Below are positions 135 through 54,295 of a stretch of 64,000 nt of DNA, piece by piece (the first letter of the stretch is position 1; the number at the start of each line of letters is the position of its first letter). This stretch comes from Phycisphaerales bacterium (GTDB lineage: Bacteria > Planctomycetota > Phycisphaerae > Phycisphaerales > UBA1924). The DNA lies in the NCBI GenBank assembly GCA_016741915.1, contig JACVCS010000003.1:1-64000 (forward strand), given 5' to 3'. The position numbers and the translations under genes were made by a program. The notes below the pieces were generated by a model that worked only from the letters and a program-made list of their open reading frames with translations, was not told the DNA's origin and searched no databases.

Positions 135-635
135 ATGATTGATATTCGGAAGCTGAAGGAACTGGTCCGTCTGATGGTTGAGAACGACCTGACGGAGTTG
201 AACCTGCAGGATCAGGCGGAGACGGTGACGGTGAAGCGGGGGATGGGGATGGTGGTTGGCGGGGCGGCGGTGATGGGTCCGCCGGTGGTGCACACGGCAC
301 CGACGGTTTCGGCGGCGGCACCGGCTGCGGCTGCTGCTCCGGCGGCGGCGGGTGGCGGCGGTGCGGCGGCGGCGGCGGCGGCGAGTGATGCGGGGCTGGT
401 GGCGATCACGAGCCCGATGGTGGGGACGTTCTATGCCGCGGCGAACCCGGAGGCGCCGGCGTTTGTGACGGCGGGGAAGGCGGTCACGCCCGACACGACG
501 GTGTGCCTGGTGGAGGCGATGAAGGTCTTCAACGAGATCAAGGCGGAGACGACGGGGGTGATCGAGCGGGTGCTGGTGCAGAGCGGCCAGAGCGTGGAGT
601 ATGGGCAGAAGCTGTTTTTGGTGAGGCCGGCGTGA
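135..635 (+). CDS. accB: acetyl-CoA carboxylase biotin carboxyl carrier protein (AccB)
   Basis: AccB carries the biotin that shuttles carboxyl groups in acetyl-CoA carboxylase, the first step of fatty acid synthesis in the cytoplasm. The 166-residue length is normal. Residues 1-40 form the conserved N-terminal segment ([11 protein letters not shown], then NLQD). Residues 55-85 are an Ala/Gly/Pro linker, unusually Ala-rich here. The biotinyl domain follows from about 88, with the attachment motif EAMKV at 128-132, so K130 should be biotinylated. The ATG is preceded by a weak GAGG. The partner subunit gene accC lies about 500 bp downstream instead of adjacent, separated by a four-helix-bundle gene. 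Confidence 0.97.
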
Positions 636-636
636 C

Positions 637-658
637 GCTCTGCCCGGACGGGCAGAGC
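637..658. terminator. hairpin just after accB
   Basis: A perfect 10-bp stem (GCTCTGCCCG / CGGGCAGAGC) with a 2-nt loop begins one base after the accB stop codon. No T-tract follows, so it may be a transcript-stabilising or attenuating hairpin and not an intrinsic terminator. A hairpin of similar design lies at 15374-15395. Confidence 0.5.
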
Positions 659-659
659 G

Positions 660-697
660 GAGAGATCGAGGGATCATGGGACCAAGGGACCGAGTGG
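660..697 (+). repeat. octanucleotide (RAGGGAYC) array A
   Basis: About four to five degenerate units of the 8-bp pattern RAGGGAYC (variants GAGGGATC, AAGGGACC). The array overlaps the 5' end of the four-helix-bundle reading frame. It is inverted relative to array B at 1092-1130, and other copies lie at 2494-2552 and 45857-45977. Confidence 0.75.
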
Positions 698-1095
698 AAG
701 GCGGGGACACTGATCGGGTCGTGCGAACGTATCGCGATCTGGTTGCGTGGCAGAAGGCGTATGAACTCGGTTTGGAGGTCAGCAGGTCGGCCCGGTCCTT
801 GCCGGCGGAAGAACGTTTCGGTCTCGGTTCGCAGCTTCGGCGTGGTGCGGTATCGGTTGCGAGCAACATCGCCGAGGGGTATGGAAGGGGCGGGCGAGCG
901 GACTATGTGCGATTTCTGAAAGTCGCGCGGGGCAGTCTGTATGAGTTGGAGACACAGCTGAGTTTTTGTTTCGATCTTGGATATCACGATGCCGCGGTGC
1001 ACGAGCATCTGCGCGTCAAGTTGCAGGAATGTGAGCGTGTGCTCGCGGGGTTGATCCGGTCGTTGGAACGATTGAACGGCGGTTCAAACCCCTGA
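676..1095 (+). CDS. four-helix-bundle protein (bS23/IVP family)
   Basis: This 139-residue protein matches the four-helix-bundle family first known from 23S rRNA intervening sequences and related to the Avd accessory protein of diversity-generating retroelements. Visible hallmarks are YRDLVAWQKAYEL near the start, then LRRGAVSVASNIAEGYGR and a late helix starting with YELETQL. No rRNA or reverse transcriptase is nearby, and the molecular role of stand-alone members is not settled. The first codons lie inside an octamer array, so the true start may be GTG at 721, which would give VRTYRDLVAW. The gene splits accB from accC and is bracketed by inverted octamer arrays, which suggests insertion as a unit. 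Confidence 0.85.
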   Translation: MGPRDRVEGGDTDRVVRTYRDLVAWQKAYELGLEVSRSARSLPAEERFGLGSQLRRGAVSVASNIAEGYGRGGRADYVRFLKVARGSLYELETQLSFCFDLGYHDAAVHEHLRVKLQECERVLAGLIRSLERLNGGSNP

Positions 1096-1130
1096 TCCCT
1101 TGGTCCCTTGGTCCCTCGATCCCCGGGTTC
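1092..1130 (-). repeat. octanucleotide array B, inverted
   Basis: Read on the minus strand this is the same RAGGGAYC pattern as array A, with about four units. Together A and B form an imperfect inverted repeat around the four-helix-bundle gene. The array ends a few bases before the accC start codon. Confidence 0.75.
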
Positions 1131-1136
1131 TTCTTC

Positions 1137-2477
1137 ATGTTCAGCCGCATCCTTATTGCCAACCGTGGTGAAATCGCCCTTCGTGTTATCCGCGCCTGCC
1201 GGGAGTTGGGGGTGGAGTCGGTGTGCGTGTATTCGGAGGCGGACAAGGATGCGCCGTATCTGAAGCTTGCGGACCGGGCGATTTGCATCGGGCCGGCGCC
1301 GGCGAAGGAGAGCTATCTCAACATCGCGCGGATCATCGCGGCGGCGGAGATTGCCGACGTGGACGCGATCCACCCCGGGTATGGGTTCCTTTCCGAGCGG
1401 GCGGAGTTTGCGCAGGCGTGTTTGGACTGCAAGATCGAGTTCATCGGGCCCACGCCGAGCGCGATGGCTCGGCTGGGTGACAAGGTGGCGTGCAAGAACG
1501 CGGCGAAGGAGGCGGGGGTGCCGATTTTTCCGGGCTCGCCCGGGGCGGTTGAGGATCCGGAAGAGGCGGTGAAGATCGCGGAGAAGATCGGGTACCCGGT
1601 GATCATCAAGGCGAGCGCCGGCGGCGGCGGGCGCGGCATGCGCGTGTGCCACAACGAGATGAGCCTGCGGAGCAACCTGCAGGCGGCGAGCACGGAGGCG
1701 CAGGCGGCCTTCGGCAACGGTGCGGTGTTCATCGAGAAGTTCCTGGAGCACGCGCAGCACGTTGAGATCCAGGTCATCGGGGATAAGTTCGGGAATGCCG
1801 TGCACCTGTGGGAGCGGAACTGCTCTGTCCAGCGGCGGCATCAGAAGCTGATCGAGGAAGCGCCGAGCCCGGGGCTCTCACGCGAGAAGATTGCGCCGGT
1901 ATGCGAGTCGGCGGTTCGGCTCATCCAGCAGGCGAAGTATCACGGGGCGGCGACGGTTGAGTTTTTGATGGACCACAAGCAGAACTTCTACATGCTTGAG
2001 GTGAACACGCGGGTGCAGGTTGAGCACCCGGTGACGGAGCAGATCACGGGGATCGATATTGTGAAGACGATGATCCGCGTGGCGGCGGGTGAGAAGCTTG
2101 GGCTGAAGCAGAGCGATATCAAGGTGCACGGGCACGCGATCGAGTGCCGAATTAACGCGGAGGATCCGGCGCGGAACTTCATGCCGCAGCCGGGGCCTGT
2201 GACGACGTGGGAGATGCCGGGCGGGCCTGGGGTGCGGATGGACACGCACGTGGTGCCCGGGTATGTGATCCCGAAGTTTTACGACAGCATGGTGGCGAAG
2301 CTGATCGTGCACGCGGACGACCGGACGCAGTGCATCGATCGGACTGCCCGGGCGCTGCGGGAGTACAACGTGCAGCCGATCAAAACGACGATCCCGCTGC
2401 ATTTGCGGTTGATGGAGAACACGGACTTCCGCAAGGGCGGGGTGGATATTCACTTCTTGGAGCGGTTGTTGAAGTGA
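1137..2477 (+). CDS. accC: acetyl-CoA carboxylase, biotin carboxylase subunit (AccC)
   Basis: AccC carboxylates the biotin on AccB using ATP and bicarbonate. At 446 residues it is full length. The N-terminal biotin-carboxylase domain opens with ILIANRGEIALRVIRA. The ATP-grasp glycine-rich loop KASAGGGGRGMR lies at about 158-168, and the catalytic NTRVQVEHPVTE segment near 290-301. The C-terminal biotin-carboxylase domain completes the protein. The ATG at 1137 gives the canonical MFSRILIANRGE start. It follows accB in the same direction, and the carboxyltransferase genes accA/accD are not in the window. Confidence 0.98.
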   Translation: MFSRILIANRGEIALRVIRACRELGVESVCVYSEADKDAPYLKLADRAICIGPAPAKESYLNIARIIAAAEIADVDAIHPGYGFLSERAEFAQACLDCKIEFIGPTPSAMARLGDKVACKNAAKEAGVPIFPGSPGAVEDPEEAVKIAEKIGYPVIIKASAGGGGRGMRVCHNEMSLRSNLQAASTEAQAAFGNGAVFIEKFLEHAQHVEIQVIGDKFGNAVHLWERNCSVQRRHQKLIEEAPSPGLSREKIAPVCESAVRLIQQAKYHGAATVEFLMDHKQNFYMLEVNTRVQVEHPVTEQITGIDIVKTMIRVAAGEKLGLKQSDIKVHGHAIECRINAEDPARNFMPQPGPVTTWEMPGGPGVRMDTHVVPGYVIPKFYDSMVAKLIVHADDRTQCIDRTARALREYNVQPIKTTIPLHLRLMENTDFRKGGVDIHFLERLLK

Positions 2478-2493: not shown

Positions 2494-2552
2494 GCAGAAG
2501 GGATCGAGGGATCAAGAGATCAGGGGATCGAGGGTTCAAGGCACCAAGTGGC
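2494..2552 (+). repeat. octanucleotide array C
   Basis: Roughly six to seven degenerate RAGGGAYC units start about 20 bp after the accC stop, in the same orientation as array A. The 3' units decay in sequence. No gene overlaps it. Confidence 0.7.
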
Positions 2553-44056: not shown

Positions 44057-44258
44057 GCGGGATGATAAGAGAAGCACGGGGGACAAAGTGGCGGGCAAAT
44101 CACGGGCGGATGTGGCTTTTTGTACGAAAAACCCGGAATGGGGTGTGAGTCAGAGGGGGTACGGTGTCGATACACTGTGAACGCGTTTGGCATGGCAGTT
44201 GCAGTGGGTGCGGTTCTTGATGGCTGTGGGGGCGGGGGTTGAAGGAGTGCGGAGTTCG

Positions 44259-45851
44259 ATGCGGTTTGATGCCTCTCAATCCATGCGCATGAGCCAGCAG
44301 ATGAAGCTGGCGCCGCAGATGATCCAGTCGATGGAGATTCTGCAGATGTCGCAGGCGGAGTTGGAGGAGCGGATCGAGCGGGAGCTTGAGAACAACGCGA
44401 CGCTGGAGATCGCCGAGGGGGGCGAGGGCGAGTTTGAGCTGCGTGCGGAGCGTGAGCAGGAGCGGTTTGAGGCGAAGGCCGAGCGGGGGGAGCTGACGGT
44501 CGGCGAGGGTGCGGCGGACTTTGAGCGGCTGGACACCTTTGAGCAGAGCAACCCCGAGGCGGCGGAGAACGCGTTTGATGAAGGAGTGGGGGGCAGCGGG
44601 CTGACGCGCGAGCGCGATGATTGGATGGAGCGGTCGCGTTCGGGGAGTGACGGCGGCGGCGATCGCGACGCGAAGATGGACGCGATGGCGAACACGGCCG
44701 AGCGCGCCAAGCCGGTGCAGGAGCAGTTGATCGAGCAGTGGGCCCTGACGGAAGTCGACGAGACCCTGAGGCCCCTGGGCGAGGCGATCCTGGCGCATAT
44801 TGAGGATGATGGGTACCTGCGGACGCCGCTGGAGAAGATTTTGGATCGGATGCCGGGCGCAACGATGAAGGGCGGCGCGCCGGTGGCGATCGCGGATTTG
44901 GAGCGGGCGCTGCGTGCGGTGCAGTTGCTCATGGAGCCGGCGGGGATCGGGGCACGTGACAGCAAAGAGTGCCTGCTGCTGCAGATCGACGTGAAGCTCG
45001 ACGAACTCGCGGCCCGCGACGGCAGCGAGGCGGAGCGCAGCGGCTGGGAGCTTGCGCGCACGATCGTCGCGGAGAATCTCGAAGACCTGGCGAACAACCG
45101 GCTGCCCAAGATCGCCAAAGGCACCGGGGCGAGCGTCGATGAGATCAAGGGTGCGCTGGAGCGGTTGCGGACGCTGAGGCTCGCGCCGGGGCGCGGGCTG
45201 AGCGAGAGCGTTGAGCCGGCGATCGTGCCCGACGCGTTCGTGGAGTATGACGCGGAGGGTGATCGGTACATCGCGTACCTGAACGAATCGCGGTTGCCGA
45301 ATCTGCGGGTGAATCAGGAGTACGCGAAGCTGGCGAAGGACCGCACGGCCCCGAAGCCCACGCGCGAGTTCCTGAAGACGAATCTCGCGAACGCGAACTT
45401 CCTGATGGACGCCATCGAGCAGCGAAAGAAAACGGTACTGCGCGTCCTTGAGGCGGTGGTGGATGCGCAGCGCGAGTACTTCGACTTTGGCCCGCAGGCG
45501 CTGAAGCCTTTGCCCATGACGAAGGTCGCGGAGCAGCTTGGGATCCACGTGGCGACGGTGAGCCGGGCGGTGGCGGATAAGTACATCCAGACGCCGCGTG
45601 GGATCGTGGCGCTGCGGAAGTTTTTCTCGGGCGGGACGGTGAGCAGCGAATCGGGCGAAGAGGTTGCGTGGGACGCGATCAAGGTGGCGCTGCAGGAGGT
45701 GGTGTCGACGGAGGATAAGAAGAACCCGCTGAGCGACGATCAGCTCGCGGAGGAACTGAAGAAGCGCGGGTTGGATATCGCGCGACGAACGGTTGCGAAG
45801 TACCGCGGGCAGTTGGGGATCCCGACCGGGCGGTTGCGGAAGGAGCATTGA
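44259..45851 (+). CDS. rpoN: RNA polymerase sigma-54 factor
   Basis: Sigma-54 directs transcription from -24/-12 promoters with enhancer-binding ATPases. Region I is Gln/Met-rich (MRMSQQMKLAPQMIQSMEILQMSQAELEERI). An acidic linker follows, then the core-binding domain with LEPAGIGARD-like LMEPAGIGARDSKECLLLQ. The HTH region has ATVSRAVADKYIQTPRGIVALRKFFS, and the RpoN box ARRTVAKYRG lies at 508-517. The 530-residue length is normal. GGAG upstream of ATG 44259 fixes the start. No enhancer-binding protein gene is nearby. Confidence 0.95.
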   Translation: MRFDASQSMRMSQQMKLAPQMIQSMEILQMSQAELEERIERELENNATLEIAEGGEGEFELRAEREQERFEAKAERGELTVGEGAADFERLDTFEQSNPEAAENAFDEGVGGSGLTRERDDWMERSRSGSDGGGDRDAKMDAMANTAERAKPVQEQLIEQWALTEVDETLRPLGEAILAHIEDDGYLRTPLEKILDRMPGATMKGGAPVAIADLERALRAVQLLMEPAGIGARDSKECLLLQIDVKLDELAARDGSEAERSGWELARTIVAENLEDLANNRLPKIAKGTGASVDEIKGALERLRTLRLAPGRGLSESVEPAIVPDAFVEYDAEGDRYIAYLNESRLPNLRVNQEYAKLAKDRTAPKPTREFLKTNLANANFLMDAIEQRKKTVLRVLEAVVDAQREYFDFGPQALKPLPMTKVAEQLGIHVATVSRAVADKYIQTPRGIVALRKFFSGGTVSSESGEEVAWDAIKVALQEVVSTEDKKNPLSDDQLAEELKKRGLDIARRTVAKYRGQLGIPTGRLRKEH

Positions 45852-45856
45852 GGGGG

Positions 45857-45977
45857 GAGGGGATCGAGGGATCGAGGGATCGAGAGACCGAGGGATCAAG
45901 GGATCAAGGGAGCAAGGGAGCAAGGGATCAAGGGAACGAGGGAACGAGGGAACGAGGCACCGAGGGATCGAGGGACG
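45857..45977 (+). repeat. octanucleotide array D (about 15 units)
   Basis: About fifteen near-perfect 8-bp units RAGGGANC fill almost the whole gap between rpoN and ispE. The last units place AGGGA eight bases before the ispE ATG, so the repeat may double as its Shine-Dalgarno. It has the same unit as arrays near accB/accC. Confidence 0.88.
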
Positions 45978-45982
45978 ACGTG

Positions 45983-47014
45983 ATGCGGACGATTTCGGCA
46001 CGGGCTTGGGGGAAGATCAACTTGGCGTTGGCGGTCGGGCCGCCGGAGCCCGCCGGCAGTGCGAAGCCGGGGTGGCATCGGATCTGTTCGTGGTTTGCGC
46101 CGGTGCTGCTGCACGATGAGCTCACGCTTGAGCGGCTGGATGATGAGCGTTCGGCGAGCGCGTTTGCGATCTCGTGGTGCGAGGATGCGCCGGTGATCAG
46201 CCCGATCGATTGGCCGATGGAGAAGGACCTGTGCGTGCGGGCGCTTCGGCTGCTGGAGCAGCGTGTCGGGCGACCGCTGGGCGTGAAGATGTCGCTGCGG
46301 AAGCGGATCCCGGTGGGCGGGGGGATGGGCGGGGGCTCGTCGGATGCCGCGAGCATGCTGCTGGCGGTGGATCGGTTGTTCGATTTGAAACTGGGGCGTG
46401 ATGAACTGCGGACGCTGGGGGCGAAGCTGGGGAGCGATGTGGCGTTCTTTATCGATGACGAGATCGACGCCGGCGTTGACGAAGCGGACGACGACGAGGG
46501 CGACGTGGATCCGATCGTCGCGGACCTTCGGCGTGCGTGGGACCGCCCGCCGCGGTCGGCGGTGGTGAGCGGGTTCGGTGAGACGATCGAGCGCGTGGAA
46601 ACGCCGAGTGAGGATGTGCTGCTGATCGTGCCGGGGTTTGGGTGCCCGACGCAGGCGGTGTACAAGGCCTTTGATGCGAAGCCGACGGCGCGGGTTGATG
46701 AAGAGCGCGTGCGGGCGTTGGTTGAACGGGCGGCGGACGAAGGGGCGATCCCCGCGATGGAACTTTTCAACGATCTCGCTGCGCCCGCGGCGGCGGTGGA
46801 GCCGCGATTGGCGGAGGTGATGAAAAGGGTGCTCGCGCCGACGCAGATCCCGGTGTATGTGTCGGGGTCGGGGAGCACGCTGTTCGTGCCGTTTGAGGTG
46901 GAGGAGGACGACGAGGCGATCAATCGACTGGCGGATTTGGCGGAGCAGAACCTACCGCGGGAGGGGCCAGCAGCGGAGTTCGGCGTGGTGGCGGTGCCGA
47001 CGCGGGTGGTGTGA
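45983..47014 (+). CDS. ispE: 4-diphosphocytidyl-2-C-methyl-D-erythritol kinase
   Basis: IspE phosphorylates CDP-methylerythritol in the MEP isoprenoid pathway, which feeds the hopanoid cyclase encoded in the same window. The GHMP kinase motifs are ARAWGKINLALAV at the start and IPVGGGMGGGSSDAASML in the ATP loop, with LGSDVAFFI later. It is 343 residues, longer than usual, with an acidic insertion (DDEIDAGVDEADDDEGDVD) right after GSDVAFFI. The frame stays open upstream through the octamer array, but ATG 45983 gives the canonical N-terminus. Confidence 0.9.
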   Translation: MRTISARAWGKINLALAVGPPEPAGSAKPGWHRICSWFAPVLLHDELTLERLDDERSASAFAISWCEDAPVISPIDWPMEKDLCVRALRLLEQRVGRPLGVKMSLRKRIPVGGGMGGGSSDAASMLLAVDRLFDLKLGRDELRTLGAKLGSDVAFFIDDEIDAGVDEADDDEGDVDPIVADLRRAWDRPPRSAVVSGFGETIERVETPSEDVLLIVPGFGCPTQAVYKAFDAKPTARVDEERVRALVERAADEGAIPAMELFNDLAAPAAAVEPRLAEVMKRVLAPTQIPVYVSGSGSTLFVPFEVEEDDEAINRLADLAEQNLPREGPAAEFGVVAVPTRVV

Positions 47015-47067
47015 GGGACTGAGACAGTTGAACGGTGCAGATTGTCAGGACGTACGATTGTGCAGGT

Positions 47068-47391
47068 ATGGTCATCAACGGCGTGAACTTTCCGGAGCAG
47101 GAGATCGCGGCGTTCTGCGGTCGGTATGCCGTGGCGCGATTGTCTCTTTTCGGGAGCATCCTGCGAGAACCGTCGGGCGAGGGTGGGACGGGTTTTCGTC
47201 CGACGAGTGATGTGGACATGCTGGTGGAGTTTCGGGTCGGACAGACGCCGAGTTTGCTGGACTTTGCGGGGATGCAACTTGAGTTGTCGGCGTTGATCGG
47301 TCGTGAGGTGCATCTGCACACGCTGGCGATGCTATCGCCGTATTTCAGGAATGCGGTTGCGCGAGAAGCGAGGATGCTGCATGCCGCGTGA
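47068..47391 (+). CDS. mntA: MntA-type nucleotidyltransferase antitoxin
   Basis: A 107-residue minimal nucleotidyltransferase. The motif FGS...DVDMLVEF is present. Between GS and DVD there are 17 residues instead of the more usual 10 or so, owing to a Gly-rich insertion (GEGGTG). In MntA/HepT pairs this enzyme adenylylates the toxin and blocks it. Its stop overlaps the hepT start by 11 bases. TTGAAC (47028-47033) and TACGAT (47053-47058) upstream may form the promoter. The ATG at 47068 is preferred to GTG 47035. Confidence 0.85.
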   Translation: MVINGVNFPEQEIAAFCGRYAVARLSLFGSILREPSGEGGTGFRPTSDVDMLVEFRVGQTPSLLDFAGMQLELSALIGREVHLHTLAMLSPYFRNAVAREARMLHAA

Positions 47392-47764
47392 GTCGTCGCA
47401 GGGTGGTCCGGGCGATCGTGAGCGGATGCAGCACATGCTGGACGCCGCGAGGGATGTCGCGACGATTGTTTCGGGGAAGACAATCGCTGAACTGGACTCG
47501 GACATGATTACGCGGCGTGCGCTGCTGAACGCGTTGCAGGAGATCGGTGAAGCGGCGGCGCGCGTCGGAGATGAAGGGCGCCGGCGCACGCCCACACTTG
47601 CGTGGGGCAAGATCGTTGCGACACGGAACATTCTTGTTCACGTGTACTGGGGTGTTGATCACGAGCAGATCTGGAAAATGGCCACGATCAACGTGCCGGA
47701 GATGATCGCCGCCCTCGAAGCCGCGTTTGTGGATTGGCCGATGGGTGGGACGACGACTGAGTAA
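47381..47764 (+). CDS. hepT: HepT-type toxin (HEPN ribonuclease)
   Basis: A 127-residue HEPN-fold protein. The catalytic RX4HXY motif is RNILVHVY, followed by WGVDHEQIW. HepT cleaves RNA and is silenced by AMP attachment to the motif tyrosine. The N-terminal helix (RERMQHMLDAARDVATIV) fits the family. The frame overlaps the end of mntA, so the pair is a translationally coupled type VII toxin-antitoxin operon. Both catalytic residues of the motif are intact. Confidence 0.85.
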   Translation: MPRESSQGGPGDRERMQHMLDAARDVATIVSGKTIAELDSDMITRRALLNALQEIGEAAARVGDEGRRRTPTLAWGKIVATRNILVHVYWGVDHEQIWKMATINVPEMIAALEAAFVDWPMGGTTTE

Positions 47765-54227: not shown

Positions 54228-54295
54228 GTGCCCAGTGCCCAGTGCCCAGTGCCCAGTGCCCAGTGCCCAGTGCCCAGTGCCCAGTGCCCAGTGCC
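54228..54295. repeat. heptanucleotide tandem repeat, 9 perfect units
   Basis: Nine perfect copies of GTGCCCA (54228-54290) plus a five-base partial unit lie 80 bp after gmk. The unit length of 7 keeps no reading frame constant. It resembles short tandemly repeated heptamers known from cyanobacteria in form, not sequence. It is not a CRISPR array, as it has no spacers. Confidence 0.95.

What the first reader, a model, noticed from the sequence alone, without database searches (positions are those of the whole stretch)
45857..45977. Dispersed RAGGGAYC octanucleotide arrays, including one of about 15 units filling the rpoN-ispE gap
Four loci in 64 kb share the same 8-bp unit (660-697, 1092-1130, 2494-2552, 45857-45977), all intergenic and most directly before or after housekeeping genes. 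Array D ends with AGGGA eight bases upstream of the ispE ATG, so unit number could tune spacing or translation. The repeat could also bind a protein or form R-loops. An array of variable copy number would be a natural expression switch.
Basis: seen in the sequence. Interest (0 to 1): 0.6.

Follow-up and report, generated by a model that had tools for sequence, protein, structure and literature searches.

The report
Octamer arrays and an IVS-like insert
Short 8-letter DNA repeats beside housekeeping genes of a planctomycete belong to a widespread class of 7- or 8-letter repeat arrays that hug gene borders and that, in the accB-accC operon here and in many other genomes, form two matching hairpin arms around a small gene otherwise known from insertions in ribosomal RNA.

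Summary
The arrays are real, beyond chance and not confined to the window: this Phycisphaerales genome has at least 33, its genus-mate also many, most of its family none. The 5' end of the G-rich strand abuts an ORF (within 30 bp in 48 of 57 arrays; the other end in 10 of 57), usually just after a stop codon. [quoted passage not shown] Of 71 IVP loci in relatives, 47 have such inverted arms, period always 7 or 8 bp, with locus-specific units (control genes 0 of 102); so do 19 of 30 IVP loci in other phyla. Many units lack GGG, so G-quadruplexes are not the common principle. The rpoN-ispE array is a lone arm, absent there in relatives, so an ispE switch is unlikely. Closest known: G-rich heptamers of Xanthomonas/Nostoc and 23S rRNA intervening sequences. 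The link between 7/8-bp inverted arrays and IVP genes in mRNA operons was not found in the literature I could search. How the arrays spread is unknown.

The parts
135..635 (+). accB (biotin carboxyl carrier protein), gene before the IVS-like element
   Evidence: single-copy relatives in 25 of 25 genomes, next to accC in nearly all
636..659 (+). perfect hairpin CGCTCTGCCC-GGAC-GGGCAGAGCG just after the accB stop
   Evidence: sequence and fold
661..692 (+). left arm of the IVS-like element: octamer array, about 4 units
   Evidence: complementary to 1093-1124
676..1095 (+). IVP gene (PF05635, 23S rRNA intervening-sequence protein); start codon inside the left arm, stop codon inside the right arm
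   Evidence: Pfam E 5.5e-33; PDB relative 2gsc_A E 1.4e-20
1093..1124 (-). right arm: octamer array inverted relative to the left arm, ends 12 bp before accC
1137..2477 (+). accC (biotin carboxylase)
2499..2546 (+). lone degenerate octamer array 21 bp after the accC stop
44187..45851 (+). rpoN (sigma-54)
   Evidence: Sigma54 domains
45859..45978 (+). lone octamer array of 15 units, 7 bp after the rpoN stop, filling the gap to ispE
   Evidence: TRF score 134; WC fold not better than shuffles, G-quadruplex-capable
45983..47014 (+). ispE-like GHMP kinase (ATG start taken; the frame is open upstream through the array)
   Evidence: GHMP_kinases_N and _C
   Evidence: TRF 100% matches

Best explanation
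The arrays belong to a class of dispersed short-period (7 or 8 bp) structural insertions that sit at ORF borders with the G-rich strand running away from the ORF. SHOWN by sequence: they are dispersed, polar, patchy among species and sometimes converge as inverted pairs; where such a pair encloses an IVP gene, the two arms are usually complementary and share a locus-specific unit, and the accB-accC one is predicted to fold into a stem with the IVP gene in its loop. That is the anatomy of the intervening sequences (IVS) of 23S rRNA, but inside a protein-coding operon. INFERRED: array length changes by replication slippage; arms of a pair are kept alike by template switching within the hairpin or by selection for pairing; the insertions persist because they land in gaps where they do little harm, as mostly neutral or selfish sequence. 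In accB-accC the stem may be an RNase III target or slow read-through. At rpoN-ispE the array is a lone arm anchored to the rpoN stop codon; its effect, if any, is on the 3' end of the rpoN message, and it is not a dedicated ispE switch. How one unit spreads to 30 or more loci of a genome is not known.
For: Polarity 48 of 57 versus 10 of 57 within 30 bp of an ORF. At least 33 arrays in G000; patchy in relatives. IVP between inverted arms, RNA fold z -7.66 over the whole region. 71 IVP loci: arm match median 19 versus 8 for swapped arms, 47 above the 99th percentile, direct orientation 2 of 71, control genes 0 of 102, period 7 or 8 only. 19 of 30 IVP loci in other phyla. Same gap with arrays but no IVP in G001, G007, G033, G013, G014 and with IVP plus another unit in G003. 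Coxiella 23S IVS: RNase III excision and tandem heptamers before its IVP ORF (PMC4990558). Array absent at ispE in relatives.
Against: Most octamer arrays in G000 are single and not near an IVP gene (27 of 33 unpaired, only 2 IVP genes), so a common origin of lone arrays and IVP-bracketing arms is inferred. 24 of 71 IVP loci do not pass the arm test. At the site shared by G000 and G001 the two arms in G001 have different units and periods. In dnaE the insert appears to be translated in the host frame, which speaks against excision there. The fold z-score covers the whole region, not the arms alone. No expression, cleavage or mobility data.
Confidence: 0.5

Rival explanations
1. G-quadruplex element: four or more GGG tracts at 8-nt spacing fold into a G-quadruplex in the message or non-template strand just after stop codons and influence termination or mRNA stability, as proposed for Xanthomonas GGGAATC repeats.
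For: Spacing allows G3-N5 quadruplexes; fold of the rpoN-ispE array improves from -20.5 to -29.6 kcal/mol when quadruplexes are allowed. Sense-strand position after stop codons. Published CD evidence for the heptamers (PMC4692102).
Against: The same architecture uses units with no GGG, e.g. GAAGTTCC, AGGCATCA, GTTTCTA, and these gain nothing when quadruplexes are allowed. Perfect AGGGATCG tandems gained nothing in the model either. Many arrays have broken G tracts or fewer than 4 perfect units.
Confidence: 0.15
2. Purely mutational microsatellite: tandem slippage in G-rich gaps after ORFs, with arms made inverted by template switching; no element, no function, IVP association secondary.
For: Unit variants occur in blocks within arrays; unit number 3-15; lone arrays dominate.
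Against: Slippage alone does not put one unit at 30 or more loci of one genome and none in most sister genera, nor fix the period at 7 or 8, nor explain 47 of 71 IVP loci versus 0 of 102 other genes.
Confidence: 0.22
3. Expression switch for ispE: changes in unit number alter spacing or translation initiation (phase variation).
For: Array fills the gap and ends 7 bp before the ATG; the ispE frame is open through the array.
Against: Octamer array absent at ispE in the relatives; ispE context not conserved; arrays elsewhere sit mainly after stop codons of unrelated genes, including before convergent genes.
Confidence: 0.06
4. Binding-site arrays or ends of a REP/RAYT-type or other transposon mobilised in trans.
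For: Dispersed identical units; Y1_Tnp matches occur in G000 (2, weak) and G001 (1, weak).
Against: Y1_Tnp occurs in 32 of 41 relatives, most without these arrays, and the G000 matches are on contigs without listed arrays. Arms differ in sequence between IVP loci, unlike fixed transposon ends. No reverse transcriptase in G000, G001 or G007.
Confidence: 0.05

Closest known systems
G-rich heptameric repeats GGGNATC of Xanthomonas and GGGGA(C/T)T of Nostoc (Rehm et al. 2015, PMC4692102)
   Same: Dispersed intergenic G-rich tandem arrays of 2-26 units; close to the 5'-side ORF whatever its strand; after stop codons on the sense strand or before starts on the antisense strand; frequent convergent inverted pairs; general-metabolism neighbours.
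   Different: Unit 8 bp (AGGGATCR) instead of 7; Planctomycetota; here inverted pairs of the same class enclose IVP genes, and related arrays use units that cannot form G-quadruplexes.
23S rRNA intervening sequences (IVS) with the IVP/S23 ORF, e.g. Coxiella burnetii (PMC4990558)
   Same: IVP ORF between complementary arms predicted to form a closing stem; short tandem repeats next to the ORF with differing copy number.
   Different: Located between accB and accC, not in 23S rRNA; arms are tandem arrays whose unit differs between loci; excision not shown.
TAACTGA heptamer direct repeats of Beggiatoaceae, Cyanobacteria and Bacteroidetes (PMC4679880)
   Same: Intergenic 7-bp tandem repeats, patchy over phyla, no mechanism of transfer evident.
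   Different: Different unit, mostly just upstream of start codons, essentially no inverted copies.
REP elements with RAYT transposases (PMC3733652 for the palindromes)
   Same: Small dispersed intergenic repeats able to form hairpins.
   Different: No fixed 20-40 bp palindrome here; arms are tandem arrays of variable sequence; no transposase association found.

Membership tests
G-rich heptamer SSRs (Rehm 2015) | 7-nt unit GGGNATC or GGGGAYT | tested here: not met
   unit is 8 nt, AGGGATCR
G-rich heptamer SSRs (Rehm 2015) | near the 5'-side ORF; sense after stop, antisense before start | tested here: met
   48 of 57 within 30 bp on the 5' side, 10 of 57 on the 3' side
G-rich heptamer SSRs (Rehm 2015) | convergent inverted pairs | tested here: met
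   6 of 33 arrays in G000, 4 of 11 in G007, 0 of 19 in G001 by the octamer detector
G-rich heptamer SSRs (Rehm 2015) | G-quadruplex formation (CD, potassium) | not testable with these tools
   only predicted for the rpoN-ispE array
23S rRNA IVS | IVP/S23 ORF | tested here: met
   PF05635 E 5.5e-33, accB-accC element only
23S rRNA IVS | complementary termini forming a closing stem | tested here: met
   fold z -7.66, arms paired; arm match score 21
23S rRNA IVS | located in an rRNA gene | tested here: not met
   lies between accB and accC
23S rRNA IVS | excised by RNase III | not testable with these tools
   needs RNA; the open host frame at dnaE inserts argues against excision there
REP/RAYT | associated Y1 transposase | tested here: not met
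   Y1_Tnp in 32 of 41 relatives irrespective of arrays; G000 matches weak and not beside arrays
REP/RAYT | conserved 20-40 bp palindrome | tested here: not met
   tandem octamers; lone arrays have no Watson-Crick structure above shuffles
Phase-variation SSR | unit number varies between strains and alters expression | not testable with these tools
   no second genome of this species available
TAACTGA repeats | unit TAACTGA upstream of starts | tested here: not met
   different unit and period

The most novel reading that the evidence does not exclude
A new class of IVS-like insertion elements of messenger RNAs: an IVP gene bracketed by inverted tandem arrays whose period (7 or 8 bp) and orientation are fixed while the unit sequence differs from locus to locus. 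Recognition would then rest on the hairpin rather than on a sequence, and lone or empty arrays, including the known Xanthomonas/Nostoc heptamers, would be landing pads or remnants of the same system.
Probability: 0.4. Interest if true: 0.82.

Novelty: new variant of a known kind. Interest (0 to 1): 0.6.

Why it matters
Two puzzles described separately, the G-rich heptamer arrays of bacteria (no function or mobile element found) and the 23S rRNA intervening sequences with their IVP protein of unknown function, look like parts of one structural theme. If so, IVP proteins can be tested as hairpin-recognising proteins, the G-quadruplex reading of such arrays needs revision because many units cannot form them, and IVS-like inserts become a recurrent feature of housekeeping operons (groESL, accBC, pyruvate dehydrogenase, nrdJ), even inside dnaE.

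Tried and rejected
(1) ispE switch: array absent at ispE in relatives. (2) G-quadruplex as common principle: units without GGG in the same architecture. (3) RAYT/Y1 transposase: no correlation. (4) Telomerase- or DGR-like templated repeat addition, suggested by the outward polarity and by IVP's recalled kinship with the DGR accessory protein Avd: no RVT_1 in G000, G001 or G007. (5) IVP as sole driver of the octamer arrays: IVP genes in 29 of 41 relatives though only 6 have the octamer; G000 has only 2 IVP genes. (6) Conserved 5' leader of arrays: GGGA before the first unit in only 18 of 63. (7) Stop codon preference: TGA 20 of 27 before arrays, 203 of 289 in all genes. (8) Rfam: nothing in the window. 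(9) Phage carriage: four perfect units in only 2 IMG/VR stretches. (11) The 'reversed pattern' control of the genome pattern search is not valid for a tandem repeat.

Full report
OBSERVATION. The four arrays are present at the stated coordinates. The largest, 45859-45978, has 15 units at 87% match (TRF score 134). The detector used here finds 4 arrays in the window and none in 20 Markov-1 simulations. Single RAGGGAYC octamers are only twofold enriched (18 observed, 9.5 expected); the tandem arrangement is what is improbable.

GENOME AND RELATIVES. The window is on contig C81 of a 3.59-Mb, 160-contig assembly. Coordinates shared with named records place it in the Phycisphaerales (Planctomycetota): G001, same genus, corresponds to MAG Bin_57_2_2_sub (JALHNK) and G007 to MAG BJ19 (JACTNA). 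The genome holds at least 33 arrays. Perfect 3-unit registers: 69 in G000, 75 in G001, 31 in G007, 13 in G020, 2 in G025, 1 in G035, and 0 in the other 35 genomes. Over the class, 14 of 298 genomes have four tandem units, one of them 614 times (G137). Across 84,980 species the 4-unit AGGGATCR array occurs in 92 stretches, from Phycisphaerales, WOR-3, Bacteroidetes, Treponema, Elusimicrobia, Acidobacteria and others.

POLARITY. In G000, G001 and G007 the 5' end of the G-rich strand lies within 30 bp of an ORF edge in 48 of 57 arrays, the 3' end in 10 of 57; the 5' side is the nearer one in 46 of 57 (p=3e-6). In 27 arrays that edge is a same-strand stop codon, most often 5-7 bp away. This is the rule Rehm et al. 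report for Xanthomonas and Nostoc heptamers (PMC4692102). The rpoN-ispE array follows it: it begins 7 bp after the rpoN stop. Of 25 ispE loci only this one has an octamer array and one other has a 7-bp array; in the genus-mate ispE follows a different gene.

THE accB-accC ELEMENT. Arrays 661-692 and 1093-1124 are inverted relative to each other and enclose an IVP gene (676-1095; PF05635, 5.5e-33; solved relative 2gsc, XCC0516 of Xanthomonas campestris). Folded as RNA, 636-1136 gives -246 kcal/mol against -204 +/- 5.6 for shuffles (z=-7.66), with the arms forming the closing stem; the score covers the whole region, not the arms alone. The lone rpoN-ispE array shows no such signal (z=-0.07). In many relatives the same gap is 15-130 bp without arrays; in G001, G007, G033, G013 and G014 it holds inverted short-period arrays without IVP (read by eye); in G003 it holds IVP between inverted arrays of another unit (GAAGTTCC). 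In the IVP tree the G000 and G003 proteins are not sisters, which suggests separate arrivals at one site.

GENERALITY AT IVP LOCI. For 71 IVP loci of 29 genomes, the best local match between the upstream flank and the reverse complement of the downstream flank has a median score of 19, against 8 when arms are swapped between loci; 47 of 71 exceed the 99th percentile of swapped pairs, 2 of 71 do so in direct orientation, and 0 of 102 other genes do. The period in those 47 is 8 bp (24) or 7 bp (23) and nothing else. The unit is specific to the locus: G000 itself has AGGGACCA at accBC and GCACATGG at pyruvate dehydrogenase. At the nrdJ site related units (AGGCATCR) persist across genera and cross-genus arms still match (median 20.8), whereas at dnaE and groESL cross-genus arms mostly do not match (9.5 and 9) although within-locus arms do: the two arms tend to change together. 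In genomes of other phyla 19 of 30 IVP loci show the same, again only with periods 7 and 8. Caution: loci at one site are partly related by descent (dnaE, nrdJ), so the counts are not independent and the p-values are too small; the control genes are a convenience sample.

MECHANISM. Shown: polarity, dispersal, inverted arms around IVP, predicted stem, arms alike within a locus. Inferred: length change by slippage (variants run in blocks within arrays); arm concordance by template switching or by selection for pairing; cleavage or slowing at the stem by analogy with the 23S IVS, which RNase III excises in Coxiella and whose IVP ORF there is preceded by two or three tandem heptamers depending on the strain (PMC4990558). 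G-quadruplexes are possible for this unit but cannot be the shared principle, because the same architecture uses units such as GAAGTTCC, AGGCATCA and GTTTCTA. No mobilising enzyme was found: no reverse transcriptase in G000, G001 or G007, and Y1 transposases are uncorrelated. At the one site shared by G000 and G001 (a manC/ruvX-like pair, by eye) G001 has a 7-bp left arm and an 8-bp right arm, so arms can also turn over independently; and most arrays in G000 are single (27 of 33). Both facts limit the simple hairpin picture and are why confidence is only 0.5.

A SIDE RESULT. In six genera the IVP insert lies inside dnaE, and the dnaE reading frame runs open through the whole insert in the +2 frame of IVP (0 stops in 6 of 6; that frame is open in 3 of 65 other IVP loci). 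The insert therefore seems to be translated as a DnaE linker and to encode IVP in an overlapping frame, which argues against RNA excision at that site.

STATUS. What it works like: a hairpin insertion resembling a 23S IVS (accB-accC) and lone G-rich arrays resembling the Xanthomonas heptamers (rpoN-ispE, after accC). Membership: the heptamer family fails on unit length, the IVS family on location in rRNA; RNase III cleavage and G-quadruplexes remain untested. The link between 7/8-bp inverted arrays and IVP genes in protein-coding operons was not found in the open-access literature searched; subscription papers and preprints were not searchable, so novelty is provisional.

Noticed in passing
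L046, L049, L052, L056, L272, L279 (IVP inside dnaE): In six genera an IVP gene flanked by 8-bp inverted arrays lies inside dnaE; the dnaE frame stays open through the insert (+2 of the IVP frame, 0 stops in 6 of 6 versus 3 of 65 elsewhere), so the insert looks dual-coding.
   Followed up: partly
L033, L035, L037, L041, L042, L304; L047, L057, L288, L290, L291, L292; L032, L060, L303: IVP inserts recur at the same housekeeping sites in different genera: groES-groEL, before an nrdJ-like gene, between pyruvate dehydrogenase genes.
   Followed up: partly
window 54228-54295: Perfect heptamer array (GTGCCCA)x9.7 between gmk-like and a convergent gene, followed by a terminator-like hairpin.
   Followed up: partly
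L050, L051, L053, L054: In four genomes both arms (units like GAGCAGGA) lie upstream of the IVP gene rather than around it, a different layout conserved between families.
   Followed up: no
G137 (L270): One class relative has 614 four-unit registers of a close variant, mostly AGGGAGCR: an extreme expansion.
   Followed up: no
L064 (G000) versus L091 (G001): Same gene pair in two species of one genus: 8-bp inverted arms in G000, but a 7-bp left arm and an 8-bp right arm in G001.
   Followed up: partly
window 47035-47764: MNT-like nucleotidyltransferase and HepT-like genes, a probable toxin-antitoxin pair, directly after ispE.
   Followed up: no
G330, G331, G332 (WOR-3), G319 (Bacteroidetes): Very high IVP copy number (19-31 per genome) in genomes that also carry the octamer arrays.
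   Followed up: no
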